Origin: Amyloporia xantha
Lineage: Eukaryota; Basidiomycota; Agaricomycetes; Polyporales; Adustoporiaceae
NCBI GenBank assembly: GCA_036971615.1
Contig: JAYKKR010000004.1
Span: 1,240,001-1,304,000 of the forward strand
DNA length: 64,000 bases
Direction of reading: 5' to 3'
Every line of letters begins with the position of its first letter. Position 1 is the stretch's first letter. A model generated the notes under the pieces. That model was not told the origin of the DNA. It did not search any database and saw only the letters and a list, made by a program, of their open reading frames with translations. Below are positions 31,261-57,899 of this stretch, piece by piece. A program made the translations under genes and the position numbers.

Positions 31261-31939
31261 CTACGCCTCCCACTTCCACCCCTCGTAGTGTTCTTCCAAG
31301 TACTCCCTGACCTGTGTCCAATCTCTGCATTCGTGAGTCACATTCATCCCAGTCGCAGCCTTTACAAGAGTGTGTCCATCAAAGTCTAGCACCATCCGGA
31401 CAGGCTCCGCCGTAATGTCTGCGTGGCAGAGAATCATCTGGCGCAGATATTGGAGACAGTGCTGAGCATGTCCCGTCTCGGAAACCGATAAGTTATGCTG
31501 CCGGGCGACGAACTTCCGCAGGGCGTTCAAGCAATGAAGTTGATGGTAAACGGATACTGCGAAGAAATCGTCCCCATGCTCAGCCTGCGGAAGTCGCAGG
31601 AATCCGCCTCCGATAGGGATAGATGAGGTCCATTCGTCGTCTGCATGTAGCCCGTACCGATCTGAATCTTCCACAGATAATGCAACAGGCCGTGCTATGA
31701 GGCCAGGAAATTGCGTGGATCTCGCAGTTCTGAGGTAGACTAAGATTGACCAGGTTATCTTTTATGATTCTGAGCAAGACGAGTGCCGACGTACCATCAG
31801 AGGACCGCCATTGCCATAGTATTGCGATGCATACGCAGTGAAGAAGGATAGATGAAACTAGAACAGTTGCCACCCAGAGGATGATGCCGAATGGAATCCC
31901 ATGGACCTTCCTCAGACGATTACGAGAAGAATTGAACAT
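31261..31939 (-). CDS. UstYa-like oxidase (DUF3328), copy 1
   Basis: Two exons (31795-31939 and 31261-31739; 55-nt intron, GTACGT to TAG) encode 207 residues. A single membrane segment (about 16-43, IPFGIILWVATVLVSSILLH) precedes a lumenal domain. Both family motifs are intact: HQLHC (114-118) and HAQHC (139-143), followed by CHAD and THECRDW. UstYa proteins are membrane-anchored oxidases of the secretory pathway that cyclise or modify core peptides in fungal RiPP pathways; the two HxxHC motifs are thought to bind metal. The next gene on the same strand is an S33 hydrolase. Three other copies lie within 21 kb. The start was chosen so the membrane segment has a short basic N-terminus. Confidence 0.88.
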
Positions 31940-32563: not shown

Positions 32564-33509
32564 TCAAATCTCCAGAAAGCCAAGAATTTCTTTAATGTAG
32601 CTTTCACGTTCCTCCAACATAGGCGTATGACTGGAGTTCTCAAATCTCCGCCACTTCACCTTTGCTATCTTTTCGAAGAATGGTCTTACGACGAAGTCCT
32701 GCGCTACATCCGCGCGGCCATTAATAACGAGTGTAGGGACCCGGATGAGGTGCAGCTGATCTAGGATGGACCAGTCTTTGAGTTCCTGGGAAAACCTGTC
32801 CATCCGTAAGTTACAGTAGGCATGACATCGAAAATCGGTCTCACATCGCCCTCTCAACCGTGGGCATGTAACCCTCCCCGAAAACTCGATCAAGTGGTCC
32901 CCAAAATTCCTTCGGTGGCGGTTGCACCGTACAGCCATGTTTGGCTTGGAATTGCCTCATAGCGCGACCCAATCGTTTCGGGTCATCCCAGCCTACGGAA
33001 AAAGCATCCCGCACTTCTTGTGGGAATGCTTGAAGTAGCTGCCCGGTGGATTCACTCCACATCGCGGACGACGCGAAAGAATCGGTGAGTATGAGGCGCC
33101 TGAGACCAGGAGGCCGTCGTCTGATCTCGAACTCAGCACCAAGCTGCCCTCCCCATGAATGGCCCAATATGTCAAAGTTGCCTTCGATGTCGAAGTACTT
33201 TAGTACATTGACAAGTTCGTCAATGAAAAGATCGATGTTCCAAAATGTGATGGGTTTGTCGGGAAAGTACGTGGAACGACCGCCACCGATCTGGTCGTAG
33301 ACTATGACTGGAATCGATGCCTTCTCAGCCAGGTCCGCTAGCGGTAGGAGGCAGTCGTGGGCAAGCCCAGGGCCTCCGTGTAGAGTGACGAGAGGTGTGC
33401 GACTGCGATCTGAGATGTCCCCAAAGACCTTGTACCATGTGTGGCAGATGTCACCGTCGACGGCGAAAGGTATGGTACCCTCAATGGCAGGTACAGAAGA
33501 AGAAGCCAT
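32564..33509 (-). CDS. S33 proline-iminopeptidase-like hydrolase, copy 1
   Basis: Two exons (32845-33509 and 32564-32795; 49-nt intron, GTGAGA to CAG) encode 298 residues. The alpha/beta-hydrolase marks are HGGPGLAHD (oxyanion region), DQIGGGRST, the nucleophile elbow GHSWGG with Ser118, the Asp region INGRADVAQD, and the His in SSHTPMLEE. This is the pattern of proline iminopeptidases and related L-amino-acid amidases, which remove N-terminal residues, often Pro, or cleave amides. No signal peptide is evident. It is about as long as, and has the same intron position as, the copy at 40365-41316, so the two are paralogues. Its place between UstYa-like genes and near the SYGY precursor suggests peptide trimming; that is inference. 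Confidence 0.88.
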
Positions 33510-34889: not shown

Positions 34890-36155
34890 TCATACGCTAT
34901 CCTGCGCGAGGGATCCGGTAGAGGCTTTGTGCAGAAGGTCAGGATCTGATAGGCCGAAGGTCATCGAGGAAATATCAGTGCCTGTGGTCCGTGGGACCGT
35001 ATCCAACCCCGTCAGATCTTTCGGCTCTACGAACTCCATTTCTGACACAGTCGATGCGTTGGCAAAGGTCGACCTCGACCACGCTCGGCCTTGCGCAACG
35101 CGGAGCATAATGAGCGTGGGGGTGATGCACTGCAATAAAGAGAAAGCACAGTCAGGGGAGTAGTGAATTGATAATCGGCAGCTACTGCTCACCTGCACTT
35201 GGGAAAGCAGCGGTATGAACAGGTTCTCTCCGGTGTTCTGTTTAGCGTACAGGACAATGAAGATGAAGCTGACGAGCCCGTATGGGATGGCACACTCCAC
35301 GACCATAGCTGCAATGTACGAATATGTCTTGCCGTGCTCGCTGCCAAGGGTACCGATAATCTCCCGGCGCATCCGCAGGAGACGGGACACGAGCATCAGC
35401 GTGAGGATGATGTTGAGCGACATGGAGAGGGACCAGTATGGCACGGAGAAGTCGAGGGTTCCTTGCGCCCACAAACTCGAGTCCGGCTGCGCAGCTTGAA
35501 TCACGAAGAAGACGGAGAGCACTGTGTCGTGAGCGGCATCTAATCAGTCATCAAGTTTCGTGGAAGAATGTTTGAGTCATTTACCAATAGAAGCCAGATA
35601 CATCAGGAAAGGAATCACGAGGAGTAGCCATCTGTTATTCCAGACCACAAAACAACGGTAGAGCTAAATATAACACGGTTGTTCATTTCTCACACAGCTA
35701 TTCCTGAGGAATTGAGAGCACGCACTAGCAATCCGTCCGCCATGAACGGAGCGATGATAGCCGCGCAATTGGCCGCAGTGTTGAGGGGATTCTGCTCTTG
35801 CTCCATGATGTAAGCAAACGGCCCACCGGGGTAGTTGCGGTCGTCAATCCAGGTGAATTCATTGAAGCGAATATTGCATGCAATGTTGACGGATCCAAGC
35901 CCAAAGAGGATAGTGACAAAGAGTACGGGAAGCCAGGAGCGCCGAAGTCCCTTGCGGTGTAAGAGATGGTAGATGCTTCTCATGAAGACGATTGCATGCA
36001 TCCCTGCGCGCAGCAGAGTCAGCATCACACCCAAGTCTGGTACATCATTTTAAGAACATACCGTATGCTACCGCACCAATGTAAGTGCCTGCATTGATGG
36101 ACTGCTCTATCCACAGGTCTGCCTGGGATTCGTCCGGAGCATATGGGTTAGACAT
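34890..36155 (-). CDS. Multi-pass (about 7TM) membrane protein, function unknown
   Basis: Five exons (36062-36155, 35726-36003, 35585-35663, 35193-35521, 34890-35129) encode 339 residues. All introns are GT-AG and the phases agree. Hydrophobic segments occur near residues 20-45, 55-75, 105-125, 130-150, 160-180, 205-230 and 240-255. A loop with WIDDRNYPGGPFAYI follows segment 2 and a Ser/Thr-rich cytoplasmic tail ends the protein. This is the layout of a large family of uncharacterised agaricomycete 7TM proteins, receptor-like but without a known ligand. It lies inside the UstYa/S33 zone, 1.4 kb from the first SYGY precursor. A sensor or transporter for the peptide is possible but unsupported. 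Confidence 0.8.
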
Positions 36156-36339
36156 ACGGGACCCGGAATCAGTTGTCCACAGTGTTCGAAGGAGAGTACT
36201 GAGGAACCAAGCTGGTGTGATCCAAGAAGATGTTCCCCATTTAAGAATGTAGAGGCCTATATGACAGCTTATCGCGAAGCGGAGCACGTTGCACCCGGGT
36301 CGTCTGGATTCAGCGGCCAGCGCCCAAATGTCCAACTAG

Positions 36340-37544
36340 AGCGCCGACTCAGCTGGCTATTTCCTCACAGGAACGCTTTCTGGGGTAGAACTCAGCCTAC
36401 GTCGGACGCAGAACCGCATGTCACACGCAGCAGGCCTGAGTAAAATTCGGTCAAAACAGCATAACTCTAATTGATTTACGCCATACTAAGACAGCACAAA
36501 ACGTACCGTGACAGAGGGGTACAGGAACGTTTGAGAGGCGCGGCTGGAACTTTGGAAGCAATATAGCATCCATTGTCGAAAGTATCAACTCTGAGCATGT
36601 GATTCTCCCAGGCTAGGGTCTCCCATCATCTCGACGACTCTCGGTGCGCTGGCATCATCCAAACGGAAGTACTCGGTCTTTCACCGACATCCCCGGAAAG
36701 ATTCTGACCAAGTAGTAATCAACGCATGTGTAGCTTCGTATTCGCAATTTGGGCGAAAAACGTGAAGGTGCTTGATCTTTGATCGGACGGTCGGACGGTC
36801 ACGGCCCATTAATATTGCGGCCATAAGTGCCAATACCTCTACTCCTTCGTCCCCTACGACAGAGTTTGTATGTCCCAAATATAGGTTTGAGCTGTTGCTC
36901 TGCTCCCCTGCCAGAGTACGGAGTACGGAATGACCCTCCCTAGCCGCTCTCGCTCTTGATAAATTCGAGCATTATGGTTCATACTGGGCCCGAGTATCAA
37001 CGTAGCACGTAGTATGTATACTACCGGATCACGACTTCCTGTTGGGTCTACGTTCGATGTATATGCTAACTTCTATTCTCAGGCCCCGGGCAAAGCCCAT
37101 GCCTCTAGATGCGCCCATCGTGGCGGTATCAACGCTGTCGCAGAAGGTTTGATTCACAAGCTTTCAGTCAGTGATGCAGACGCTTTCGTGGAGGTCGACT
37201 CTCACAGTTCTGGCAAACAGCTGCCACCATGTGGTCTGATACCATCAGCTACTTACGATTGCAAGCATAGTGACTGTCAGATATGTTTGTCTCGTTTCCA
37301 TTGTGGCGCTACGCACTGATCATCTGCCAGTGCGAGTGGAATATGGATGCGAAATCAACGCCGAATACATCACCATTGCATTATGATCACTTTTGTGCTT
37401 TGTCTGCGGTGCCGTTCCATGCTTCTTCCGACCTTGTACTTCCTAATACCTTGGAAAGCCCCGGCGTCCCGTAGCATCATATAACACACTGATAAAGCTG
37501 CCAGTGCGCTCGGACGCTTAACAACACTCACTCCATCTGCCTCC
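36340..37544. other. Spacer upstream of precursor 1
   Basis: No gene was supported. It includes the conserved upstream region shared with precursor 2, probably the promoter, ending in a pyrimidine-rich leader directly before the ATG at 37545. Confidence 0.45.
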
Positions 37545-37739
37545 ATGCATTTCTTTAGCAAAGTCATCACTGTCTGTCTCTGCATGGTCCTGCTTGCGGC
37601 CGCGACTCCGACACCTGCTGAGAGCGGTACGTAGTTCATTCCTCCCTTTTGCATATTGGTCGCTCAGGTCCTTCCCGCAGATGTCGCCAGTGCCCCCGAT
37701 GCCGTTGCAAGTGCTGACCCCCTATCCTACGGTTACTGA
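37545..37739 (+). CDS. Small secreted peptide ending SYGY, candidate RiPP precursor 1
   Basis: Two exons (37545-37626 and 37681-37739; 54-nt phase-1 intron, GTACGT to GCAG) encode 46 residues. Residues 1-20 are a strong signal peptide (MHFFSKV, then a Cys/Leu/Val/Ala core). The predicted mature part starts TPTPAES, runs through an acidic Ala/Pro/Val spacer (DVASAPDAVASADP) and ends LSYGY-stop. The copy at 48420 has the same exon plan, a similar signal, TPTP and the same SYGY end, although the spacer differs. There is no Cys in the mature part and no Lys/Arg pair, so Kex2 cleavage is not expected. Proximity to UstYa-like oxidases, which act on Tyr-containing cores in dikaritin RiPPs, makes SYGY the likely core. 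Confidence 0.72.
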
Positions 37740-38192
37740 ATATGTAGCGAACTCCTAGGTATTCAAGCTATAAATCCCCTGCTCTCTTAGTGCTTACCGT
37801 TATTACTGTCCCTGATTTTATAAGATGGTCAGGAAGGCGGAGACGCGGAGATGGTTCCGCTTGCGCTGTAGTATTTGATAATCATATTGAATTAGCGAAT
37901 TTAGGATGGGGGGCATGTCATTATTTGATTGATTTTTATGTCAAAGAAACGCTGTACAACCGCTTAGTTGCGTATATATGCATGCACGGATGTACTACGA
38001 ACTACCTTTGCAAGCATCGCCGCTCCTAGTGATTTCTCTGCCGCCAATCTCAGCTCGTATTTCGAAATTTTGAACACCCCTGATGAAAAGTGAACTCTCA
38101 TTTGTGTTATTGACTGTGCACTAATGATATGTTGACCTGAATCAGGCGTCTGTACAAGTCCTGCCGGTGTCAGGTCTATCGTCCTAGCGGCG

Positions 38193-38795
38193 ATGACTCT
38201 TGTCGCTGCCCTCGGTATTATATACCGGCATTTCCAGCTCTCGTCGACGTTCACAAGGCTTTATAGTGCGTGTTGGCTTCTCATGAATACAAATGATTTC
38301 ATTCAATGAAAGGATATCCATGTAGGCTACCGAGGGTCCGACTTTCCGTTGAATTGGGACATACCAGAGCTGGAATCCGTGTATATGACCCTGGAGAACA
38401 CGGTGCACTACGTGCTGAACACGTCTTTCGGCGACTTAGAGTGGGACAGTGCCCTTCCGGCTGGCGGTGGGATGCTCTACCTCGGAGATGATCTGGACCC
38501 GTTCAGCATCTCCCTGTTTCATCAGCTTCGATGCCTCGACATCATTCGGAACTCCCTCGTCACCCGCATAGGCCACAGTAATACGAGTAAACCTGGTTTA
38601 CTGGATACGCATTGCATGAACTACATCCGTCAGATGGTGCTATGTCGGGCAGACTTACGTTTGGAGTATATTCGGGAGGTTAGAATATCTGGAACCGCTG
38701 TCGCAGATGTTACTCACATGTGCAGAGACTGGAGCGCCTTGTTTACAGCTGCTGAGGACAATCACGCGATATATCTGAAGCGAACTCAAGCATGA
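38193..38795 (+). CDS. UstYa-like protein (DUF3328), copy 2, with altered HxxHC motifs
   Basis: Two exons (38193-38265 and 38326-38795; 60-nt intron, GTGCGT to TAG) encode 180 residues. The second exon gives LYSYRGSDFPLNWDIPELES, the block that precedes the catalytic domain in this family, which supports the join. The first motif reads HQLRC (90-94), with Arg for the second His. The second reads LDTHC (117-121), lacking the first His. CRAD and THMCRDW are kept. The N-terminal membrane segment is short and an upstream exon may be missing. It starts about 450 nt after precursor 1 on the same strand, so it is the closest partner. The changes suggest a specialised or non-catalytic subunit, as UstYa and UstYb work together in ustiloxin formation; the activity is unknown. 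Confidence 0.8.
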
Positions 38796-38918
38796 TGTAG
38801 CAGAGCGTATCAGTTATTACCAATATTTATATTCGTAGACCACAGTATGGGATATCCTAGTACACGTGCATTCAGTACAAGACATGCATGTCCTCAGTCA
38901 AACGTCCGAGACTCGCAC

Positions 38919-39572
38919 CTAGTCCTTATTCATAGACTCCCATTCCCTCCAATTATCCTCCATGACAGCATATGCTGTACTCCAATCCCTGCATACATGG
39001 GTTGCCCCCTCTTTCTCGGCCTCATGATCGCGCAAAGTAAAATCGCCACGTTCCAACGTAGTATCTGCCGCACACAGCGCCATCTCACGCAGGTATATCA
39101 AACAATGGTGGACATGTTCGATAGGAGCCATTGAAGAGCCCCCGTACGCAAAGTTCAAGACCCGAAGACAGTGTAACTCATGGAACATAGTCACGAGGAA
39201 TAGACGTTGTTCGGGCCCCAAACGGACGTAACCAAAGCTAGTTGTTGTGAGGCCGCTCCAGTGAGCGTCGGACTGATCTCCCAGTAGAGGAAAATGGCTG
39301 CTCTCCTCCACCGTCAACCAGACGGGCTCGAGCTCGCCATCCGGGAGTGGAAGAGTCATAGGGATGTCGTGAGCTTTGTATTCTGGGCAGTATATGTCGT
39401 TAATGTGGACGACAACTACATAATGATATAAGGTCAACTGTAACTCACCAAAGTCATGTCGTCCATGTTCGATGTAGGCAGTTCTCGGTAGGAGATGGTT
39501 CACCAACGTCCAGAGGTTGAAGCAACTGATGAAGAGCAAAGACCCCGCCAGCATAACCTTCCCGGATAGCAT
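38919..39572 (-). CDS. UstYa-like oxidase (DUF3328), copy 3
   Basis: Two exons (39449-39572 and 38919-39382; 66-nt intron, GTGAGT to CAG) encode 195 residues. The intron is a multiple of three and open, but removing all 66 nt joins RHDF to EYKAHDIPMTLPLPDG, matching the family layout seen in copy 2. The N-terminal hydrophobic segment (about 6-27) is a membrane anchor or signal. HELHC (109-113) and HVHHC (131-135) are intact, followed by CAAD and THVCRDW. The gene is convergent with copy 2, leaving only about 120 nt between the stop codons. A role in oxidising a secreted peptide is inferred from family and position. Confidence 0.87.
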   Translation of the reverse strand: MLSGKVMLAGSLLFISCFNLWTLVNHLLPRTAYIEHGRHDFGELQLTLYHYVVVVHINDIYCPEYKAHDIPMTLPLPDGELEPVWLTVEESSHFPLLGDQSDAHWSGLTTTSFGYVRLGPEQRLFLVTMFHELHCLRVLNFAYGGSSMAPIEHVHHCLIYLREMALCAADTTLERGDFTLRDHEAEKEGATHVCRDWSTAYAVMEDNWREWESMNKD

Positions 39573-40364
39573 GATAATGTCCGAGTGCTTCTGCTGAGAT
39601 GCAAGTGCTTAGGACGATTATATTCCGGAACAGTTGCATCTTCACACCCCCACCACTTCGGAACAGACACAGAGTCATACACGGGACATCCATATTGGCC
39701 GCGTGAAGTGCATATACCTTGGCTCCCACCATCAAGACTCATTTGAATTGCGCACGGGCGCAATCAAATTATCTGACGCCTAAATGATAACATCTAATGA
39801 TTAATGGCTATGACAAATAGATGCTGTAGCGATTAGTGCGCTCTGAAGTACCGCCCACAAAATATTGGGGGAAACCATCATCCGTTCGTTCACCAAAGCG
39901 TGCTAACTGCACTTGGATGATAACGCATGCGTCAATGTGAACATTGTGGGGCAGGAGGACGGGACGATGTATCAAGAATGGAACTCACGGATATAGTTCA
40001 GAGCCAGTTCCACAACTTCGGGTAACCGCTGGATCAACATGCTCCATTTTGGACACGGGCTTCTGATCTTCCCATCCCTACCAGTAACAATGCTTCTTCG
40101 CGAAATTCAGGCTGGGGTTTCTCAGGAGAACAGTTGATATTTGAGTGATATGCACAGCATAGAAACACTGTTTGCCTGTCCATGTGCAAGTCAAACAATT
40201 ACGAATCTCTCAGCAATTTATCTCCATGCGGCTGAGGAGGGTTCATCAAGGCTCACCAAAGGAGAGACTGTGTTGTGAGTACCTCCATTGCGACGCTCTG
40301 CATACTGACGGACCCTCGGCCTGATAGGATAACCCTTCTGTTGTCAAAGCCGCTGCTTTACGTC
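39573..40364. other. Spacer between divergent UstYa copy 3 and S33 copy 2
   Basis: A shared upstream region of about 0.8 kb for two divergently transcribed genes. No other gene was recognised. Confidence 0.5.
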
Positions 40365-41316
40365 ATGGCGACGCTTCACGATGTTTCCAGTACCGAAGGC
40401 TTCGTACCGTTTGTTGTCGACGGCGAGACCTACCAGACATGGTATAAAGCCTTCGGTGACTTATCGGTCCCAGGTCGCACACCGCTCGTCGTCTTGCATG
40501 GCGGACCAGGTCTCGCCCATGACAACATGCTCCCTTTAGCCGACCTCACACGAGAAAAGTCCGTCCCCGTCGTGTTCTACGATCAGGTGGGCGGGGGTCG
40601 ATCCACTCACTTACCGCAAAAGCTGCATTCCTTCTGGACCATCGATCTTTTCATCGATGAACTGGTTAACGTGCTGACCTACTTCGGGATACAAGATAAA
40701 TTTGATATCATTGGTCATTCGTGGGGTGGCATGCTGGCCGCTGAATTTGAGGTTCGACGTCGACCGCCAGGCTTAAGGCGCCTCATCCTCACGAACTCGC
40801 TAGCGTCACACGCGTTGTGGCAGGAATCAATAATGCAGTTGGTTCAAGCATTCCCGAAGGAGGTCCAGGAGGGCCTTGCAGTGGGTTTTGAGAATCCGAA
40901 GGTATTCGGGCGTGCTATGAGGAAATTCCACGAGAAACACGGATGCACCGTGAAACCAATGCCCAAGGAGTTCACCGATCCTATGGACGCTGTCTTCGGA
41001 GAAAACGGTGATCCCACCGTCGAAGTCGCAATGTGAGCTCTTTCGATTTGGATACACATGTTATGGTGACTTACGCGATGTAAGGTGGACCCACGAGCTC
41101 AAAGACTGGAGCATTATTGGCCGCCTTCACCTTATCCGAGTGCCAACACTGATCATTAACGGGCGCGCTGACATCGCGCAGGACTTTGTCATCAGGCCTT
41201 TCTTCGAAGAAATTCCGACAGTTAAATGGCGTACCTTCGAGCAATCAAGCCACACGCCTATGCTCGAGCAACGGGAGGACTACATAAAGGAGATTTCGAC
41301 TTACTTAGACATTTAG
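40365..41316 (+). CDS. S33 proline-iminopeptidase-like hydrolase, copy 2
   Basis: Two exons (40365-41032 and 41085-41316; 52-nt intron, GTGAGC to AAG, phase 2) encode 299 residues. The motifs match copy 1: HGGPGLAHD, DQVGGGRST, GHSWGG with Ser119, INGRADIAQD and SSHTPMLEQ. The intron splits the same Met codon as in copy 1, showing common descent. The longer frame that starts at 40275 adds a tail absent from copy 1, so the ATG at 40365 was chosen. It is head to head with UstYa copy 3. Removal of N-terminal residues from the TPTP-starting peptides would suit this enzyme class; the substrate is inference. Confidence 0.9.
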
Positions 41317-43760
41317 TATCCTATACTTTACTGAGACTGCTTGTTCTAGGACGCAATGTTTGCTGATCATGCCTGAGCGCCACTAAAGTCGACATGAATA
41401 AGGTCCTCAGAGAATACCGGTACTGAGACGGTGTACAAGAGCCAGCGTCGCAGTTTGAAGAACTCGTCCCGACAAAATATAAAACAGTTCCGAAGGAGAA
41501 ATGCAAGGCTTTGGCCCTAGCAAATTCAAGGCGAAGTCGCAAGTGAAGATGTGCGAGCACTGAGTACTGAGTACTGAGCGCTGAGCATTGAGGTAGCGGA
41601 CATCGGCAAATACCGAGTGTCGACAAACTCAATGCTTCGCTGTCGACAACGTTGGTTACGGCACACAACAATTGACTTCAGCCTCTACAGATTCGTCTGC
41701 AATCCTATAATATCTACTGGCTGGTTTTGCCTGGCGTTCGACGCGAAGGTACCTTTTTTTCACCTTGAGGGATGCGCAACTGCCAGGTCATATACTAGTA
41801 TAATTTATATCCGCCAAAAATCACCACCGCCTGCCCTCAGTAAAGAATGTTCTGCTATGTCTAGATTTTTGTCCCTTGGCCCTTAAAGTTGAAATTATAT
41901 CCTGAGGCGGCCTGGGATCGATCTATTTCTCGTCAATTTGGAGTCAAGCAACTCTACTACTGTGGACGAAGTGTACCGCGCTACGACGTCGTCGCTACGT
42001 AGAGATCATCTTAGCAGTGTCTCTCGCGGAGATTGACACCGTAGCAGAAACGATGTTTGTCCACCCTCTGCATCTATCATAAATGCGGAAATATTTACAT
42101 CCCTACGAGCGCATGCGCGATAGAGCGTGGCTCTAGATGTGCTAGGATGAGAGGTGTTCATGTCCATGTTCAAATGTAGCTTGTACACGTACTGATACTC
42201 GAAGAACATTCTGGGGTCGGGGGAGTTGTGAGGGCGAGAGCTGCGGTAACTCTGATAAACAAGGCATGTCCTGTGTATTGACTTTTGCGGACAGAGACTA
42301 TCTATGTTGTGTATGATGTAGGTGCACGAGATGACATGAAGCTCGACGTCACCAACCTGCAGCTGGCAGAGACATGGGCAATTCTTGCAGGCAGCCCGAT
42401 ACGGTCAGATATATTGCTTGACGAAGAGTGCGTTCGAACAGGTGAGTGATCTTATGAACAAGCTATTAGCAGATGCAAAGATACACGCGATCCGATGTTC
42501 GTAACGCTCTGCTGGACTCCTGAGCGGAGACTCAGATCCGATAGTTGAAGCTGTCGCGAAATGCTTGTGTTATCTTCTAAGGCCTGTGCGGACAGAGAAA
42601 GGTTGGTGCACTCACCCATAAGTACGACCGCTGTTAACTGGAATAAGTAACTCCTTCTCATTCTAGAGCAGACCCAACTTCCAGGATACGCACGACATTG
42701 CTAATCAACGTAGCTGGTCCAGCCTTGTATCGCTGATCAAGCGCGGACGTTGTGAGCACGTATGTCGGACTAAGACGTAGCTGCCCTGACGCATGCACCT
42801 AAATATGTCGTGGGCATTGGTGTGTGGTCCGCACGATGGCGACCATCTAGTGCCTCGATTGGAGATCGCATATGTGGTCTGTCGTTCCTGAGACGCAAAG
42901 CATCACGGTTCGCTCACAAGAGTATCAGCTGTAGATAGCAGCGATGCGGTCTGCTCGCACCTCTCCTGTTCATGTCCATCATGCTCATAAGAGAGGGTGC
43001 GCCTTTCTCATATCCGCTTGAGGTGCCGCTATGGGCGTGTGTCCCATTCCGAGAGCAAATGCAAAGTGGCTGGTGCACTCTGGATGTGAGCGAGTGTCAT
43101 CGTGTCGAATGGTTGACCTGTTCTCGTATCAGTCCGTCTTCATTTACTTCCAATGGTTGCGCAAACTGACCTCGAGGCCGAAACCAGCACAGGAGCTATT
43201 GACCACCCCCCTCGGCCATAATTTTCCTTCGCCATCATCGACCTGCTAACGGCGCGCAGAGCTCGCCGCTTGAAATAAGCAAATGCAATGAAGCTCCAGC
43301 CTACAGGCGATCGCCAGAAAATGACGCAGCCTCTGGTCATAAACGACGCTCTGGCGGGAACTATACACACTTACAACGCCTTCCTGTGGTGACACCCATG
43401 TACCGCACCCGCGCGGACGCCTTCGACGAGATGAAAGGTAGAAAACTGCTTTGCACAAGCGGATTGGTTCACTGCGGGCCTTGGACTATGCGTCTTGCAT
43501 TGTCCGAGACGAGCGGTGGGCGGCAGGTCGGTGAGCATCGGTACTACGGCGGGAGACTGGCCATCGGGTTTCGACGCGCAATGAACCTATAAGGGTACGA
43601 TCGGGATATAGTTCCTCGTGCCCGAGAGGTCTGTAGAGGGTATTCCTGGGGCTGGCTCTCGTAGGTGGTCGGAAGGGACCCCGGTCTACCGTTCAGTAAG
43701 TGTGGCAAGCTACACGCGGATGGCACTCATTCGCGACCCCGTGACCGACGCGATAGACGA
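41317..43760. other. Intergenic, about 2.4 kb, no supported gene
   Basis: A small ACTGAGT tandem lies at about 41557-41590. Frames at 42006-42209 and 43140-43370 (minus) are short and featureless. From about 43490 onward the sequence begins to match the region upstream of the second basic-protein copy (about 56380). Confidence 0.45.
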
Positions 43761-43763
43761 AGG

Positions 43764-43773
43764 ATATTTAAGA
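43764..43773 (+). promoter_or_regulatory. TATA-like element of the basic-protein gene
   Basis: ATATTTAAGA lies about 120 nt before the ATG at 43892. The following promoter and leader (GGCTCTCTCACAGTACGG, then CTCACTCCATCTATTTGCAT) is almost identical before the second copy at 57251, so it is conserved or recently duplicated. Confidence 0.5.
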
Positions 43774-43891
43774 CCCGGCTCTCTCACAGTACGGCTCTCT
43801 GCCCTCACTCCATCTATTTGCATTCAAGCCCTCCCATCTCGACTCAGCAGTCACCCCGTGCTGATATCTACCACTACATTTCCTCCTCGAC

Positions 43892-44412
43892 ATGCAGACG
43901 ACTAAGCGAGGGTCGGCAACCACCATGGGGGGAGCAAGTGCGGGCCGAAGGGGAGACAAAGAGCCACATCTGCCTCCCAAGCACGACAGGAAGATCGACA
44001 GTGCGCGGCAGCTGTCGATAAAACATATGAGAAAGTTGGGCAGAATGCCCAAGCCCATTCTCATGGTCAAAGGCGAGCCCGCCTTACTTCGTCGGAGCGC
44101 CCGAATACGGGCCCAAACCGTCGCAGACGAGAGACCATCTCGTGCAAACACCCTCCTGAGGAAGGAGGCTCTAGATATTAAACCACGTCGCGCCGCGACA
44201 AAAAGGTGGGTATATTCTCATTATATGCTTTCTCGATGTGTCACCGCTATGGGGGTGGTGGCACCATATGTCGCACGCTACGAGCCAGTATAACTGGGGT
44301 GTAGACTCTCAGTCGTGACCATACAGTTTGCTGACGACTGTCATCATCCAGGAAACGGCCCCAGGACAAGTCAGACGATGCGTCGGGGAGCGCAAAGAAG
44401 GCCAGAACTTAA
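43892..44412 (+). CDS. Lineage-specific small basic, probably nuclear protein, copy 1
   Basis: Two exons (43892-44205 and 44352-44412; 146-nt phase-2 intron, GTGGGT to CAG) give 124 residues. The protein is rich in Lys and Arg: GRRGDKEPHLPPKHDRK, LLRRSARIRAQ and KPRRAATK. The second exon adds RKRPQDKSDDASGSAKKART, which together looks like a bipartite nuclear localisation signal. No domain was recognised. A second copy at 57251 shares promoter, exon plan and sequence. There the tail continues as ERLTILVKPIRPPT; here four extra nucleotides create an earlier stop. Function unknown. Confidence 0.55.
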
Positions 44413-45435
44413 ACGGAGCGGCTGACAATACTAGTAAACCCGATCAGACCGCCGACATAGCGGTACAGGCATGCTATTCCGTTGCACTCAGCCTCCGACG
44501 CCAAGAACAACAGTGTCAAACAAGCTCTTGCAGTCTTTCTCTGGGTGATCGTCCTGCCGAGTAGGTACCAGCACCTATAGGAAGGTGTGGCGCGCGCGCC
44601 GTACGCTCTCTGCGTTCAGAATGCTCCCCTGTGCGAAGTTATGGCGGGCGTCAGGACGTACTTGAATACTTCGAGGCAGGTGTATGTCCTCTACTCGAAA
44701 GAGACTGTACATCAATGGGAGACTCAGGAAGGGGAAGCTGACTATTTGTATTCTTTGACAAATTGTTTGTAAGATTTGTATTGGCATGGCCATTATATCA
44801 TACAACTGTATCTTGCTTCCGGGTATATGTGTGGGTCCCGATAATATTCTAGTGCTATCACCGCTTGACCACGCCGATAAAGTTGGATAAACAAGTTGTC
44901 ATCACTGGCAGTCGATTCATAGAGGCCTAGAACGACTAAAAATACGCACATTGAGTTACTACGATCTAGTTTATTTCACGCGCCTTATGTCAACGTTGAA
45001 TGGATACCTTTCCAGAGGTGCCTGGAACAGTCATGTTTCCGTTCAAAATGACGCCTCAACCACATCACCGACTTCCTTGTAATTATGAGGGAAAATAGGC
45101 GGGACGAACCTACAGCATCCAATGCTCAAAAGAACTTTGCTTCTGGCAGCAACATCATTCAAGCAAGGTATCAGAAGCAAAGCAAAAATCCCGAGCCTAG
45201 CCCAAGACGCTGTCATTGTCCATCAAAGTATCGCATAGCCAGACAGAAAGAGATCCGGCATCAGCTTATCATTGCTTACATCCATGCACCGGCAGTCACG
45301 GAAACCTTGAAACATGAAACGTAGCAAGACTGCGCGCATATATAACGATTTGTCTTACTGTCTCTAGTCCCACTCTCCGTTAACCCTAGTGCTGCACTAA
45401 CACGCAGACGTCTTCAAATAGCCAACGCCAGTACT
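44413..45435. other. Intergenic
   Basis: Nothing recognised. It ends with the promoter of GNA1. Confidence 0.5.
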
Positions 45436-46117
45436 ATGCCACTCACGCCCGATTGCGACCTCGAACTCTTCTTCCCTGCCGAGATCGTTCCTGCCGAGGC
45501 ACGAAAGGGACTACCGCCAGCCTTCCACGTACGTCTCGCCGCATCCGTTTCCCGATTAATCCAAACACATAGATCTGGCGTTTACACTCACCACTGCAGA
45601 TACGCCCGCTCGCCTTGACAGACTACCATCGCGGCTATCTCTCCGTCCTCTCCCTTCTGAACGCTGCACCAGACTTGGGCGAGCACTCCTGGATTGCGCA
45701 GTTCGAGACCCTGCGCTCGATGCAGGACGTCTACTTTCCCATCGTCATCGTCGAACGGGAGACGGACAGCATCGCAGCGGCTGGTACGATATACATCGAA
45801 CACAAATTCACATTCCGAGGCGTGGGGAGGGGTATGGCGCCGGCGAATGTAGGTAACATGGAGGATGTCTCAGTGGCGAGAGAACATCAGGACAAGCACC
45901 TCGGCGTCTTCCTCATTCGCGCGCTGGCAGCGCTCAGTGAGGCACTAGGGTGCTATGATGTAATGGGGACGTGCAGTGACGAGAACCTGCGTGCGTGAAC
46001 TGCATGTTGAAAACAACACGGGTACAAGTTGGACACTGACCGTGGCTAACGATAGCATTCTACCTCAAGTGTGGAGCGGTAAGGCGAGGGAATGGGATGG
46101 TGAATGATTTGACTTGA
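45436..46117 (+). CDS. GNA1: Glucosamine-6-phosphate N-acetyltransferase
   Basis: Three exons (45436-45528, 45600-45990, 46056-46117) encode 181 residues, close to the usual size of fungal Gna1. GNAT-fold marks are VGNMEDVSVAREHQDKHLGV, the acetyl-CoA loop with the Q/R-x-x-G-x-G/A-type turn, then LGCYDVMGTCSDENL and FYLKCGA, matching the conserved C-x-E-N-x-x-F-Y-x-K-C-G end. Both introns are GT-AG and the joined frame stays in phase. The enzyme makes N-acetylglucosamine-6-phosphate for UDP-GlcNAc, chitin and glycosylation. It is a housekeeping gene and its place in this rearranged zone is probably incidental. Confidence 0.93.
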
Positions 46118-46890
46118 GTTATGTGTGCGCCTCAGTCGATGAGCTGATTTCTTGCCCGGGTTTAGGTCAAGCTGGCACTGAGTCTTGCCTCGAGAGTGCC
46201 CTCAGGCTCAGTCCTTCCGAGGCTGTGAACTTATTGAGGCGGCAGTTTCGGGGGTTTCTCCGCAATTTTGGTAAGTACACGGAGGTGGAATTCTGCAGAA
46301 GCGTTGCAGCCCATGAGGCTCGAGCAGATGGAATTATTTTGGCACAAGTGTAATTTGACATAGTCAAGATCGCTGACCTCCGATACGGAACAACAGGAAT
46401 CGCCGCAAAGAGACGAGGGGACTATCGTTGTAGATTGAGAATCCGCATGTATTCAGATATACTTTGAGGGACCCATGAGGACAGCTGTGAGGCTAAAACA
46501 ATGTACAAGGCACTCACCCAATTCTATGAATAAGTTCTTAGCACTGGATGCGGTTTAGAATATTTCTGACAAGTATATTCTAAAGATATTCTAAAGATAG
46601 TCAGAATAAGTTTTGCCCTTTACAGCAAACAAAATCCTAATATTTTCCAATTGATATCCTAATCTTTGGAGCACATTTACAATATCTTCTAGCCTACACA
46701 ATATATTTTCCATATGTTCCAAATATTCAAGAGTCGATTATGCTAAAAGTATTTTGACTTACTTTACAATATTTTCACCATACCACACTGGAAAATAGTC
46801 TAAACTGCATCCAGTGTAGAGGGACTGCTGATTCCATTGTTGAGGCTGAGATGTAAACCCCTGGTTTAGATAAATGCTGAGTCTACTCAG
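46118..46890. other. Intergenic with AT-rich patch
   Basis: About 46520-46800 is AT-rich with repeated AATATTTT and TATTCTAAAGATA words, much like 20960-21420. It may be an old insertion. No gene was seen. Confidence 0.5.
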
Positions 46891-46893
46891 GCA

Positions 46894-47420
46894 ATGATCA
46901 TGATCGTCAATCCTGGATGGACTTATGAACTCAAATACTCTGAGTCTCCTTTGGTCGATTTTATCTTATCCAGCTTCCGACGGCGATCATCATTACCCGC
47001 GCGGACACAATGGGTTTCATCGAAGAAATTACGATCACGTACCTTCTCATGGGAGGCGCGTTGGCATTGGAATTCGAAGTCCGGCGTCCGTCTGTTGGTC
47101 TTCGCCATCCTAGAGGCTGCACAGTACGCGCCCAAGTAATGCCTTTGCTCGCTGGAGCAGAACAACCCTGAAAATGACGACCCCGTGTCGTACAGGCCAC
47201 GTACATATCCTGTCGCCAGTCGTGGGTCCTTACCCTCTACATCATGATTGTATTGCTAGCATTCAGCAAGAACTGGTCAATAGTCGATCGGCTACACTGT
47301 GTCCGGGGGTCATCTTTCGTGATAAATGGGACACTGGCAGGTCCAACAGCAGGTTTTCACATAGCAACAACTGCTACAAACCGTTGTTCGACCGTATTGC
47401 AGTGATGATGCCTTGAGTGA
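46894..47420 (+). pseudogene. Decayed S33 proline-iminopeptidase-like gene
   Basis: Fragments of the S33 genes survive out of frame with each other. Around 47055-47110 the translation GGALALEFEVRRPSVGLRH matches GGMLAAEFEVRRRPPGLRRL of the intact copies. At 46918-46940 WTYELK recalls WTHELK, the start of exon 2. From about 47190 the DNA matches the relic at 49120 that still encodes part of exon 2. The nucleophile motif is lost (LLMGG for GHSWGG). No continuous product is possible. Confidence 0.6.
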
Positions 47421-48419
47421 ATTGGAGCCACGGCTAGGTCTAGGGCGTACGTGATAGATATATGCCGACAGTTGTCACTATCTCCCGTAGTGACACTCCA
47501 GTTCTCGCAGTAGAAATTTGCATAGCAGGACAGACCTCTGAGTTGCGGCTGTCTGAAGATAGTTTCTGACAGCTTTCAGTGGAATCAGTTGTCGACAGTG
47601 TGTCAAGGAGTGCCGAGGAACGAAGTCCATATGATGCAAGAAGATGGTGCCCATTTCACAGTAATATGCTAGAGCCTCGAGGGAAAGCTGAATACTGTTA
47701 ACGTTTGGGTGGAAAAGATGCTCGATCTTTGATCGGTCGGCATTCGGGCAGCCACATTGATTGTGGCTACACATGTCATACTGTTATCCCTTCCTCCTCT
47801 GCCAGAGTACCGAGTACGGCCCGCCCACCCTACTATAACAGCTCTCGCTCTTGACAGCTTCAAAATATACGGTTCATACTGGGCTCGGTGAATATCAATT
47901 AAGTACATATGCTACAGGATCACGACTTTCTGTCGGGCCCATGTTCTATACATGTATACGACTTCCGTTGTCAAAGTCTCGGGCAAAGCACAGGTCTCCA
48001 GATGCGCCCGTCGCGGCTGTATCAACGCTATTGTAGAAGGTTTGATTCGCCAATTTTATCGTACTAGTAGGTGACGCAGACGCCTTCATCAGGGCCGACT
48101 CTCACAGCTTTGGCGGACAGCTGTCGGTGCTATCTACGGTCTCATGAGCATGACACTGCCAGATAAGTCTGTGCCGCTTCCGTTGCGGCGCTCTGTACTG
48201 ATTATTTGCAATACATGCAGAATCAACACCGACAATATCATTTCTGCATTATGATACACTTGTGAGCTTTGTCTGCTGCATCATTCCACGCTATTTTCAC
48301 CTTTGTGATTTCCAATCCCCTGGTATCCTGAACACCTCCGGTGTCACATAGCCACATTTAATGCAGTGATAAAGCTGCCAGCACATTTGGACACCTGACA
48401 ATACTCACCCCATTTGCCC

Positions 48420-48713
48420 ATGCAATTCTTCAGTAAAGTCATCATTGCCTGTCTCTGCATGGCTCTCGCTGTAGCCTCGACACCGACACCACCTAGTGAT
48501 AATGGTACGTGGCTCACTCCTTGTCTCGTACCCAGACAGTATATGCCGCACCCAGCCACCGAACACTCTTACCTGTGGTGGTGAGTACGGCATGAAAGGT
48601 CTGGGTACGAGACCGCTCGTTCCTTCCTCTTGCGTATTGGCCGCTTAGGTCCTTCCGCAGATGTTTCCAGCCCCCCTGAAGACGTTAGCGATGTAGCATC
48701 TTACGGTTACTGA
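48420..48713 (+). CDS. Small secreted peptide ending SYGY, candidate RiPP precursor 2
   Basis: Two exons (48420-48504 and 48661-48713; phase-1 intron of 156 nt, GTACGT to GCAG) encode 45 residues. The signal peptide (MQFFSKVIIACLCMALAVA) aligns with precursor 1. The mature part starts TPTPPSDN, has the acidic spacer DVSSPPEDVSDV and ends ASYGY-stop. The intron has gained about 100 bp, mostly a hairpin element, which does not disturb the splice sites. An alternative AG 12 nt upstream keeps the frame here but not in copy 1, so the shared downstream acceptor is preferred. The spacer has changed more than the signal, TPTP and SYGY, as expected if those parts are functional. Confidence 0.7.
48523..48615. 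mobile_element. Hairpin MITE in the intron of precursor 2
   Basis: GTCTCGTACCCAGAC at the left is inverted as GTCTGGGTACGAGAC at the right, with TATGCCG and CGGCAT as inner arms. The paralogous intron of precursor 1 lacks this block, so it is an insertion of about 93 bp. There is no coding capacity. Confidence 0.75.
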
Positions 48714-49114
48714 ATATATGGCGAGGTTCGAGGTATTCAAGCTATAGTTCTGCTGCTCCATCAGTGCTTACCGTTAATACTATCTGTGAATGTTATAGGA
48801 TGGTCAGGGAAGTGAGGAGAGAGTCCCGCTTTAGCTGTGATACCTGACAAACCATATTGAATTAGCGAAATCAGGATGGGTGATATGGCATTGTCTGACG
48901 GACTTCTCTGTTATATATAAACGCATGCACGATTGCGCGACCCAGTCTGCCCACATCGCCGCTCTCACGAAGTGACGACCCTGGCACCATTCTCAGCGCG
49001 CATTTCAAGAGTAAACGCTCATTTGTGCTATGAATTGCTGAGAGAACGCGCATCACATTCGGGTCGGACTCAGGCATCTGCATAAGACCTGCTAGTGTCA
49101 AAAGTACCCTCATA

Positions 49115-49400
49115 TGTTGTCATGCAAGCCACGTACATATGCTGTTACCAGTCGCGGGTCATGGTTTACCTTTTGCTCCGTATCGCTAGGATTCGACAAG
49201 AAATGGTCAATAGGCGAACGCTACACCGCGTCGGAGTACCATCTTTCGTGATGAATGAGAGAGCAGAATTTTCAGCAGATGACTGCTACAAATCGTTCTC
49301 GACCGTATCCCAGTGGCGAGTTAGAGAACTCGCACCACGCGTCGGTCTGGGGGGTACGCGATAGATATGTGCAAGTAGTTGTCAACTTCAGTCTCGCACA
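49115..49400 (+). pseudogene. Relic of S33 hydrolase exon 2
   Basis: The translation of about 49185-49320, RQEMVNRRTLHRVGVPSFV then MNERAEFSADD, aligns with exon 2 of the intact S33 genes (QELKDW, LHLIRVPTLVINGRADIAQD). The first exon and the catalytic serine are missing. The DNA also matches 47186-47480, so both relics derive from one duplication. Confidence 0.65.
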
Positions 49401-51406: not shown

Positions 51407-52095
51407 TCATACAATATCCTTGTACCCGCCCTTCGCAGGCGAGAAATCGTCGCTGTCCTCCCACGCCTCGTAGTTCGCCTCGACCCACTCGCGCACCTGC
51501 ACCCAGTCGCGGCACTCGTGCGTGCTCGTCAGGTTCGCAATCTGGCGCACGGTGCGCCCGTCGGGCAGGAGTTGGAGGCGCGCAGGCTCCAGCGTCGTGT
51601 CCGCCTGGCAGAGCGCCATCTGGCGGAGGTAGTGCAGGCAGTGCTCCGTGTGGTGCGCGCGCGCGGCGGTGTCGGTGTACCGCCCGGTCGTCATGCGCCG
51701 GAGCACGTCGAGGCAGTGGAGCTGGTGGTAGAGCGAGACGCCGTAGTACGCCTCGCCGGGGCCGAGGAGGACGAAGCCGTGTCCGAGGGGGATGAGCGAC
51801 TCCCAGTCGTCGTCCGCGTCGAGGTGGTATCGTTCGGATTTGTGGGTGATCAGCGCCGCGCGGCGGACGTCTAGAGGCAGGATGCGCGGTGTACTCCCGC
51901 TTGCAGGGTATCCTGCTCACGATGCCGTGTAAGTGCGATGTCATCCGGGGCTCAGTGGTTGCGACGCTCACCTCGTCCGGGGCGCAGACTCGAGATCTGC
52001 GAGACGATGCTCACGAAGCTGGTTATGGACAAGACCACGATGGTCAGGACAGCACAGACGATGGCTCTGGCTGGAACGGCATAGGCTGCGCGCAT
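51407..52095 (-). CDS. UstYa-like oxidase (DUF3328), copy 4
   Basis: Two exons (51972-52095 and 51407-51912; 59-nt phase-1 intron, GTGAGC to CAG) encode 209 residues. The first exon is almost entirely a membrane anchor (about 11-32, AIVCAVLTIVVLSITSFVSI). The second follows the plan of copy 1: HLDADDDWESLIPLGHGFV, then HQLHC (104-108), HTEHC (129-133), CQAD and THECRDW. Both HxxHC motifs are intact. The exon 2 DNA is much more GC-rich than that of the other copies. It lies 2.7 kb from precursor 2's nearest S33 relic, beyond the Suc/Fer gene, so membership of the peptide cluster is less certain than for copies 2 and 3. Confidence 0.88.
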
Positions 52096-52806
52096 GTGAG
52101 TTATCGCATGCGCAGAAAATAGGATGCGGTGTGTGGGCGTGAGTCAAGACGTGAAAATCGAACGTCTCATGCGCTGAGAGGCGGGAGGTCTGTTCGCATA
52201 ACGGCAAGGCGGAGGTGGGACTCGGAGGGATGGTCCACGCTTCTGATATTTGTATTTGCAGATCTCACTTTTCCCTAAAAGTAAGTGGATAACTCGTCAC
52301 GTTAGCGCCGACTTCAAGCCCAGCTGGTTATCCCAATCTCGGGCAACGTGGACAGTGAGCCGACGATGATCAAAGCATCAGGCTCATGGAACGAGAAGAA
52401 GCAGGCAGAATCCACGGAACGGAGCATAGGATAACAGTAAGGTATCTTGAACAGCAAAAGCGCAGTGTCCCCCAGTTATACAGCTTAAATTTGAACCATG
52501 AAAGTCGAGCCATGGGAAAGTCCACGGTAAAGTCACAAAGTTCATAGAAAACATATAATTTCGTGCGTAATCAGGCGCGCAGGGAGCATCATGCGGATGC
52601 CTCCACGTTTGATGTTGATGCTGATGGCGGCCATGTCCGCATGCCTAACGCCTCCACGTATCCCACCTTTCCACTTATGGATCTCTCCTACTTGACCACC
52701 TTCCCACCAGGAGGAGGTTAACGAGCGCGACAGGCCGGCAGCTGCTATATGCATTATTCCACTTGATTCCTCAGGATCGCAGTTCACGCTCTCCCTCACT
52801 GACACC

Positions 52807-53070
52807 ATGCCCTCTCCGAGCTACGCACCTCTCCCAAGCGCACCAAATGATTCAGAAGAGGGCGTGCCGGAGTCCAAGAGCTCTAACGGCCTAGGCTCGC
52901 AGCGCTTGCCCACCATCGCCGTTAGGGCCTTCTATGTCGTCTGCGCGCTGGCCGTCTGTCTGGCCTTCACGAATCTGACGCTCACCCTCATGACGGTGCG
53001 CGACTATCGCAGTCTGGACGACTTGCCCCGTCCTGACGTGAATGTCGGTCTGCCGCGCAAGTCGGGGTAG
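52807..53070 (+). CDS. Small single-pass membrane protein, possibly a truncated DUF3328-like gene
   Basis: An 87-residue frame: hydrophilic Ser/Pro-rich start (MPSPSYAPLPSAPNDSEEG), one membrane segment (about 36-60, AFYVVCALAVCLAFTNLTLTL), then DYRSLDDLPRPDVNVGLPRK. The LPRPDxxVGL end after a membrane helix is common at the N-terminus of basidiomycete UstYa-like and related proteins, where a second exon carries the main domain. No such exon follows here. It may be a genuine small protein or the leftover of a longer gene. A pyrimidine-rich leader precedes the ATG. Confidence 0.5.
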   Translation: MPSPSYAPLPSAPNDSEEGVPESKSSNGLGSQRLPTIAVRAFYVVCALAVCLAFTNLTLTLMTVRDYRSLDDLPRPDVNVGLPRKSG

Positions 53071-57120: not shown

Positions 57121-57250
57121 AGTGATTTAAGACCTGGCTCTCTCAAAGTATGGCTCTCTCCCCTCACTCCATCTATTTGCATTCAAGCCCTCCCATCTCG
57201 ACTCAGCAGTCACCCCGTGCTGATATCTACCACTACATTCATCCTTGACA

Positions 57251-57818
57251 TGCAGACAGCTAAGCGAGTGTCGCCAACCACCATGGGGGAAACAAGCACG
57301 GGCCGAAGGGGAGACAAAGAGCCACATCTGCCTCCCAAGCACGACAGGAAGATCGACAGTGCGCGGCGGCTGCCTATCAAACATATGAGAAAGTTGGGCA
57401 GATGCCCAAGCCCATTCTCATGGTCAAAGGCGACCCCGCCTTACTTCGTCGGAGCGCCCGAATACGGGCCCAAAATGTCGCAGACGAGACATCATCTCGT
57501 ACAAACACCCTCCTGAGGAAGGAGGTTCTAGATATTAAACCACGTCGCGCCGCGACAAAAAGGTGGGCATATTCTCATTATATGCTTTCTCGATGTGTCA
57601 CCGCTATGGGGGCGGTGGCACCATATGTCGCATACTACGAGCCAGTATAACTGGGGTGCAGACCTTCTAGATTCAGTCGTGACCATACAGTTTACTGACG
57701 ACTGTCATCGTCCAGGAAACGGCCCCAGGACAAGTCAGACGATGCATCGGGGAGTGCAAAGAAGGCCAAAACGGAGCGGCTGACAATACTAGTAAAACCG
57801 ATCAGACCGCCGACATAG
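57251..57818 (+). pseudogene. Basic, probably nuclear protein, copy 2 (frameshifted)
   Basis: Same promoter, leader and two-exon plan as 43892-44412 (57251-57562 and 57716-57818). One A is missing near 57400: GGGCAGATGCCC here against GGGCAGAATGCCC in copy 1. This breaks the frame between HMRKLGR and MPKPILMVKG. An internal start at 57402 could still give the C-terminal part. The tail is longer than in copy 1, 34 residues ending IRPPT. A reading error is possible, but other differences show that the copies have diverged. Confidence 0.6.
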
Positions 57819-57899
57819 CGGTACAGGCACGCTATTCCGCTGAAAACAGCCTCCGACGCCAAGAACAACAGTGCTAACCCGACTACAAGCCCTACGACT

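What the first reader, a model, noticed from the sequence alone, without database searches (positions are those of the whole stretch)
37545..48713. Paired SYGY peptides: a candidate new basidiomycete RiPP precursor family
Two short genes encode secreted peptides of 46 and 45 residues sharing a signal peptide, a TPTP start, an acidic spacer and an identical SYGY C-terminus, while the spacer differs. UstYa-like oxidases surround them. In known dikaritin pathways UstYa proteins act on Tyr-containing cores, but those precursors carry many Kex2-separated repeats; here there is one core, no basic cleavage sites and the core ends the protein.
Basis: partly seen in the sequence, partly recalled or inferred. 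Interest (0 to 1): 0.92.

Follow-up and report, generated by a model that had tools for sequence, protein, structure and literature searches.

The report
Single-core peptide precursors beside UstYa oxidases
Two tiny fungal genes that end in the same four residues look like stripped-down precursors of a peptide natural product made with neighbouring UstYa oxidases, without the repeats and cutting signals such precursors usually carry.

Summary
SYGY1 (37545-37739, 46 aa) and SYGY2 (48420-48713, 45 aa) are two-exon genes with a signal-like N-terminus, TPTP, an acidic spacer and a C-terminal SYGY. They have no basic residue after the signal region and no repeat. Four UstYa genes lie between 31.3 and 52.1 kb, with two proline-iminopeptidase-like genes between them. 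The pair is a segmental duplication with flanks as similar as exon 2, so likeness alone proves little. But dN/dS is 0.37, and 9 of 20,000 neutral simulations kept both frame and SYGY end.

The main new support: 11 of 14 UstYa loci of this genome (10 of 12 without probable copies) carry a short secreted precursor gene. These include Kex2-type repeat precursors, a six-gene single-unit family (C26) and a single-unit gene without a dibasic site (C4). UstYa-B and UstYa-C of the window have their closest relatives at C26.

Verdict: probably UstYa-type RiPP precursors in a single-core form without Kex2 sites. They work like dikaritins but fail two defining features. Transcript, product and protease are untested. 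No homologue was found in the protein database, and no other fungal genome's DNA was searchable.

The parts
37545..37739 (+). SYGY1 precursor gene (46 aa); exons 37545-37626 and 37681-37739, phase-1 intron
   Evidence: no Pfam match
48420..48713 (+). SYGY2 precursor gene (45 aa); exons 48420-48504 and 48661-48713, phase-1 intron with a repeat insertion
   Evidence: no Pfam match
36903..37941 (+). Duplicated block, copy 1
   Evidence: self-comparison, 68.7% and 73.7% identity to copy 2
47794..48911 (+). Duplicated block, copy 2
31261..31939 (-). UstYa-A; both HXXHC motifs present; N-terminal hydrophobic segment. Start codon chosen by eye
   Evidence: PF11807 E 6.5e-24
38145..38795 (+). UstYa-B; degenerate motifs HQLRC and LDTHC; N-terminal hydrophobic segment. 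5' end approximate
   Evidence: PF11807 E 1.7e-13
38919..39572 (-). UstYa-C; both HXXHC motifs present; N-terminal hydrophobic segment. Start codon chosen by eye
   Evidence: PF11807 E 9.7e-14; 74 relatives in the protein database
51407..52110 (-). UstYa-D; both HXXHC motifs present; N-terminal hydrophobic segment. Start codon chosen by eye
   Evidence: PF11807 E 5e-23
32564..33509 (-). PIP1, proline-iminopeptidase-like hydrolase (possible trimming enzyme)
   Evidence: Abhydrolase_1 E 6.7e-11; best NCBIfam matches are proline iminopeptidases but below their cut-offs
40365..41316 (+). PIP2, proline-iminopeptidase-like hydrolase
   Evidence: Abhydrolase_1 E 5.9e-14; NCBIfam below cut-offs; best PDB match 3wmr proline iminopeptidase E 4.9e-47; 66% identical to PIP1
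34893..36157 (-). Multi-pass membrane protein of an expanded family, read away from SYGY1; role in the cluster uncertain
   Evidence: five hydrophobic segments by a crude scan, 25 exon matches in the genome, no Pfam match above cut-off

Best explanation
SYGY1 and SYGY2 are the precursor genes of a UstYa-dependent RiPP cluster (about 31-52 kb). Proposed route: the signal peptide takes the precursor into the ER and is removed near TPTP (inferred). Membrane-anchored UstYa oxidases oxidise and probably cross-link the two tyrosines of the C-terminal core (inferred from known UstYa chemistry), with the acidic spacer as leader (inferred). The core already ends the protein, so one cut on its N-terminal side frees it. 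That cut cannot be Kex2 at a dibasic site, because there is none (shown). A cut beside the Asp that stands three residues before SYGY in both copies, with trimming by the cluster's proline-iminopeptidase-like enzymes, is a guess. Shown: gene structures, signs of constraint, clustering with UstYa and PIP genes, absence of basic sites and repeats, and short secreted precursors at most UstYa loci of the genome. Inferred: that UstYa acts on SYGY, the chemistry and the protease.
For: Four UstYa genes within 31.3-52.1 kb, each with an N-terminal hydrophobic segment and three with both HXXHC motifs. No other signal-exon gene and no repeat precursor found by the same scans in 31.0-53.5 kb. Short secreted precursor genes at 11 of 14 UstYa loci, with signal-exon hits 15 in 160 kb of UstYa stretches (12 judged precursors) against 1 in 97.5 kb of other DNA. 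UstYa-C pairs with the intact C26 protein (99/97) and UstYa-B with the degenerate C26 protein (98/95) in a tree of nine segments; C26 carries six single-unit precursors. C4 has a second single-unit precursor without a dibasic site. Frame kept, dN/dS 0.37, 9 of 20,000 neutral runs keep frame and SYGY.
Against: No transcript, product or enzyme assay. Exon 2 is no more conserved than the flanks, and the intron is the best conserved part. No homologue in a database that holds many agaricomycete UstYa proteins. No Kex2 site or repeat, unlike known dikaritins. UstYa-B with the C26 partner is unresolved when shorter segments are used. The precursor scan was tuned on the way and its control set is small. 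None of 12 C26/C34 comparisons shows a shared core: C26 cores lack Tyr.
Confidence: 0.66

Rival explanations
1. SYGY1/2 are secreted signalling peptides that stay unmodified, perhaps sensed by the adjacent membrane protein, and the UstYa genes act on something else.
For: A multi-pass membrane protein is read away from SYGY1, and a remnant of its 5' end lies before SYGY2 (47581-47656 matches 36165-36242). Relatives of it lie near the C26/C52 UstYa loci (C26:46620, C26:49333, C52:38110), where 0.016 exon matches per 30 kb are expected. Unmodified secreted peptides exist in Agaricomycetes (PMC9769878, passages).
Against: Four UstYa genes with no other precursor candidate found nearby. The membrane protein belongs to a family with 25 exon matches, most far from UstYa. 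STE3 receptors are only on C3 and C58, and SYGY1/2 have no CaaX end.
Confidence: 0.13
2. The two genes are decaying remnants, or chance frames kept by recent duplication, with no product.
For: Parts of the second block are remnants: PIP pieces at about 46.9-47.4 kb, a repeated stretch 47186-47477/49118-49384 and a 7TM 5' remnant; the intron took a repeat insertion; coding parts are no more alike than flanks.
Against: Frame kept in 257 of 20,000 and frame plus SYGY in 9 of 20,000 neutral runs; both exon indels in frame; dN/dS 0.37.
Confidence: 0.1
3. SYGY1/2 are small secreted proteins unrelated to UstYa, and the UstYa enzymes of this locus serve a precursor encoded elsewhere.
For: Three UstYa loci had no precursor in the 10 kb examined (C45b, C35, C42), so UstYa genes need not sit beside their substrate.
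Against: Precursors lie 0.8-3.7 kb from a UstYa match in the 12 pairs listed, and SYGY1 is 957 bp from UstYa-B.
Confidence: 0.08

Closest known systems
Dikaritins (ustiloxin, phomopsin, asperipin-2a, victorin)
   Same: Signal peptide, Tyr-containing core, UstYa/DUF3328 genes beside the precursor (PMC7329392, PMC9233826, PMC10512285, passages).
   Different: One core instead of repeats, no KR/RR/KK site, core at the very C-terminus, basidiomycete, no tyrosinase in the cluster.
KEX2-processed repeat proteins of Agaricomycetes
   Same: Short secreted precursor; several such genes lie beside UstYa genes in this genome (C13, C19, C45a, C18).
   Different: No repeat and no Kex2 site in SYGY1/2.
C26/C52 precursor family of the same genome (six genes at C26)
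   Same: Signal exon, phase-1 intron, one unit, multiplied by gene duplication; closest relatives of UstYa-B and UstYa-C lie at this locus.
   Different: RR site in 5 of 6, no Tyr, a shared (S/M)P-x-DA-x-VL stretch in 6 of 6.
C4 precursor of the same genome
   Same: Single unit, no dibasic site, PxPxES after the signal region (as PTPAES in SYGY1), Tyr-Gly in the unit, UstYa 1.5 kb away.
   Different: Three exons, core not at the end (TYGRALDDKL), another UstYa branch.

Membership tests
Dikaritin | UstYa/DUF3328 genes beside the precursor | tested here: met
   Four PF11807 genes at 31.3-52.1 kb
Dikaritin | N-terminal signal peptide | tested here: met
   By own hydropathy and cleavage-site filter, not by SignalP
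Dikaritin | Multiple repeated cores | tested here: not met
   One unit in each gene; no repeat precursor found in 31.0-53.5 kb
Dikaritin | Dibasic Kex2 sites (KR, RR, KK) | tested here: not met
   None after residue 22; no K, R or H from TPTP on
Dikaritin | Tyr in the core (as in ustiloxin, phomopsin, asperipin-2a) | tested here: met
   Two Tyr in SYGY
Dikaritin | Tyrosinase in the cluster (Ding et al. criterion as cited in PMC12048977) | tested here: not met
   The only PF00264 matches are on C11. The same paper says its absence is not uncommon
Dikaritin | Side-chain cross-linked peptide product | not testable with these tools
   Needs LC-MS/MS
KEX2-processed repeat protein | Repeats flanked by Kex2 sites | tested here: not met
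Basidiomycete CaaX pheromone | C-terminal CaaX and a linked STE3 receptor | tested here: not met
   C-terminus SYGY; STE3 matches only on C3 and C58
Borosin | Methyltransferase domain fused to the core | tested here: not met
   45-46-aa proteins with no Pfam match

The most novel reading that the evidence does not exclude
A Kex2-independent class of UstYa RiPPs: single-core precursors whose core is the free C-terminus, released by one N-terminal cut and expanded by gene duplication instead of core repetition. It would be one end of a continuum, visible inside one genome, from one-exon-per-core repeat precursors to a two-exon signal-plus-core gene, which mining rules that require repeats or dibasic sites would miss.
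Probability: 0.42. Interest if true: 0.72.

Novelty: new variant of a known kind. Interest (0 to 1): 0.62.

Why it matters
The survey of repeat precursors reports UstYa-linked ones as rare in Basidiomycota (103 of 1680; PMC7329392, passages). In this genome short secreted precursors lie at 11 of 14 UstYa loci once one-exon-per-core and single-unit genes are allowed for. If that holds in other species, many basidiomycete UstYa genes look orphaned only because their precursors are hard to annotate. SYGY would offer a very short two-tyrosine substrate on which UstYa chemistry, and release without Kex2, could be tested directly.

Tried and rejected
Mating-locus reading: rejected (STE3 matches only on C3 and C58, no CaaX). 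Other SYGY genes: a DNA search with 601 bp around SYGY1 found only the two copies. The pattern search gave 5 matches, with 6 for its reversed control; the three outside SYGY1/2 showed no such short gene when translated around the match, judged by eye. Protein search with the two-row alignment: one candidate shared words, none scored. PIP as a cluster marker: not exclusive; the closest outside copy, on C3, is 58% identical, and C3 has no PF11807 match. NCBIfam proline-iminopeptidase models match PIP1/PIP2 only below their cut-offs, with first-exon queries. The membrane protein as a cluster marker: 3 of 25 exon matches lie near C26/C52, suggestive only. Solved UstYa relatives: none (best E 0.88). 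A shared motif between SYGY and C26 precursors (S-P-x-D-A-x-V-like) was seen by eye and not tested. No structure was predicted.

Limits of the counts: the signal-exon filter gave 8 hits in 160 kb (UstYa), 1 in 91.5 kb (control) and 0 in 31.0-53.5 kb in its first form, which missed SYGY1/2. I then loosened it: 15 in 160 kb, 1 in 97.5 kb and 2 (SYGY1/2) in 22.5 kb. Of the 15 I judge 12 to be precursors by eye. Sixteen of the 18 UstYa stretches L022-L039 were used; L034 and L035 (C52, near-copies of C26) were left out. C26 genes P3 and P6 came, and C45a and C18, not from that filter. Exon borders of the repeat genes rest on splice-site patterns, without transcripts. The 10-of-12 count drops C52 and C42, which look like copies of C26.

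Papers: 10 searches. PMC7329392, PMC12048977, PMC8893723, PMC9769878, PMC9233826, PMC10512285 and PMC6339444 were seen as passages only; all others as listings. UstYa with proline iminopeptidase: 0 papers. One search was swamped by unrelated splicing papers and says little.

I rebuilt the trees from DNA by script. One search has 21 short segments: UstYa-C with C26 at 100/98, UstYa-B unresolved. One search has nine longer segments: 99/97 and 98/95. The report uses.
Full report
WHAT IS THERE. SYGY1 is 37545-37739 with a 54-bp intron; SYGY2 is 48420-48713 with a 156-bp intron. Both introns are GT-AG and phase 1. The peptides are 46 and 45 aa and 61% identical, with TPTP after the signal region and then 4 or 5 acidic residues and no K, R or H. 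Around them lie four UstYa genes between 31.3 and 52.1 kb, each with an N-terminal hydrophobic segment. Two hydrolases, 66% identical to each other, have proline iminopeptidases as their best NCBIfam matches, though below the curated cut-offs; for PIP2 the best solved relatives are proline iminopeptidases too. A multi-pass membrane protein is read away from SYGY1.

MORE THAN CHANCE? The pair is a segmental duplication that includes upstream and downstream DNA. Aligned identity is 72% (5' flank), 77% (exon 1), 87% (intron, 53 bases), 70% (exon 2) and 76% (3' flank). So likeness by itself is no sign of constraint, and the intron is the best kept part. Other measures do point to constraint. Both exon indels are multiples of three, against 1 of 16 in flanks plus intron. 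dN/dS is 0.37 with Fisher P 0.012. With rates taken from the flanks, 1,309 of 20,000 neutral runs kept start and splice sites, 257 also a 40-52-aa frame and 9 also the SYGY end. Taken alone, the near-identity of the last 15 bases is not significant (P 0.059). SYGY2's intron took a 103-bp insertion of a dispersed element with 25 match rows at about 20 places.

THE REST OF THE GENOME. The window lies in contig C34 of a 46.8-Mb assembly. PF11807 gives 32 match rows there (a lower bound), which I group into 14 loci. In stretches around the others I looked for signal exons followed by an intron and for repeated peptides. Short secreted precursor genes were found at 11 of 14 loci, or 10 of 12 if C52 and C42 are taken as copies of C26. 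C13: GGEVYT occurs 13 times in one gene, with KR before repeats, apparently one repeat per exon, and there are two sister genes. C19: DDLFIK 9 times, with RR. C45a: at least 12 FEKSYSDYY units, apparently one per exon, KR partly formed across exon borders by my reading, and a relative at C18. C32, three loci: exon repeats around SDLVTAGAL or SD(S/V)VTSGD without clear dibasic sites. C26: six single-unit genes, five with RR, and four such genes in the C52 copy. C4: a 57-aa single-unit gene without a dibasic site, 1.5 kb from its UstYa and read away from it. C34: SYGY1/2. None was found at C45b, C35 and C42. The tuned scan gave 15 hits in 160 kb of UstYa stretches (12 judged precursors) and 1 in 97.5 kb of other DNA; this is exploratory.

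THE ENZYMES. UstYa-A, -C and -D show both HXXHC motifs; UstYa-B reads HQLRC and LDTHC. Degenerate partners also occur at C26 (HQLRC, LARHC) and C13 (RQLRC, ESGRC), about 15 and 14 kb from an intact one. In a tree of nine segments read from DNA, UstYa-C joins the intact C26 protein (99/97) and UstYa-B the degenerate C26 protein (98/95); the two C13 proteins join each other (89/88), so degeneration there may be separate. With 21 shorter segments UstYa-C with C26 stands (100/98, C42 included) but UstYa-B is unresolved. So close kin of the window's B and C enzymes sit at a locus with single-unit precursors, though with another core.

HOW IT MOST LIKELY WORKS. Signal peptide into the ER, UstYa oxidation and probable cross-linking of the tyrosines, then one cut before the core. 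These steps are inferred from dikaritin biology (PMC7329392, PMC9233826, PMC10512285, passages). A Kex2 cut at a dibasic site is excluded by sequence. An Asp stands three residues before SYGY in both copies (DPL-SYGY, DVA-SYGY), so a cut beside it is an attractive guess; a proline iminopeptidase could then remove the Pro of copy 1 only. Nothing here decides which atoms would be joined.

KNOWN OR NEW? In the papers seen, dikaritins come from repeat precursors cut by Kex2 (PMC9769878, PMC10512285, passages). SYGY1/2 fail both tests, so I do not file them as dikaritins; they probably work like them. PMC12048977 mentions a single core peptide only as a possibility (passage). My ten searches found no described single-core UstYa precursor and no described one-exon-per-core precursor, in a library without most subscription journals and partly from listings alone. 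The precursors had no match among about 5.8 billion predicted proteins, while UstYa-C found 74 relatives, many named from Agaricomycetes, the best from Wolfiporia cocos at 64% identity over 67% of the query. Genes this small are often not predicted (recalled), so the absence is weak.

OPEN. No other fungal genome's DNA was searched, so whether SYGY is lost where these UstYa genes remain is unanswered. Transcription, splicing, modification and release are untested.

Noticed in passing
L037:5222 (-), L036:8623 (-), L037:1553 (-) (C13); L025:9614 (+) with L040 (C45a); L022:2471 (-), L023:7559 (+), L024:2824 (-) (C32): Repeat precursors beside UstYa genes in which each repeat appears to lie in its own small exon; standard gene prediction would probably miss or mangle them.
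   Followed up: partly
L025:9769-9900 (C45a): Units of the C45a precursor begin KR-EAEAEVEA, which resembles the KEX2 plus STE13 signature that PMC6339444 (passages) reports for some Basidiomycota repeat proteins, here beside UstYa genes.
   Followed up: no
window 38145-38795; C26:36097-36465; C13:498667-498915: UstYa proteins with degenerate metal-motif positions recur at three loci that also hold an intact UstYa: a possible catalytic plus non-catalytic pair.
   Followed up: partly
window 48505-48660: The intron of SYGY2 holds a 103-bp element with inverted ends, found at about 20 places in the genome.
   Followed up: partly
window 46944-47402, 47581-47656, 49118-49384: Remnants of a PIP gene and of the membrane-protein gene around SYGY2, and a stretch 47186-47477 repeated at 49118-49384.
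   Followed up: partly
window 52807-53067: A frame with an acidic N-terminus, one hydrophobic segment and a DDLPRPDVNVGLP stretch that resembles a UstYa N-terminus by eye; no Pfam match.
   Followed up: no
window 43766-44515 and 57125-57873: A 750-bp stretch repeated at 92.7% identity, holding an open frame without a Pfam match.
   Followed up: no
window 62766 onwards: A frame starting MGVITLALVLAAAYLVWSHLNRPQKALPPGP that looks like a P450 N-terminus by eye; no Pfam match on that exon.
   Followed up: no
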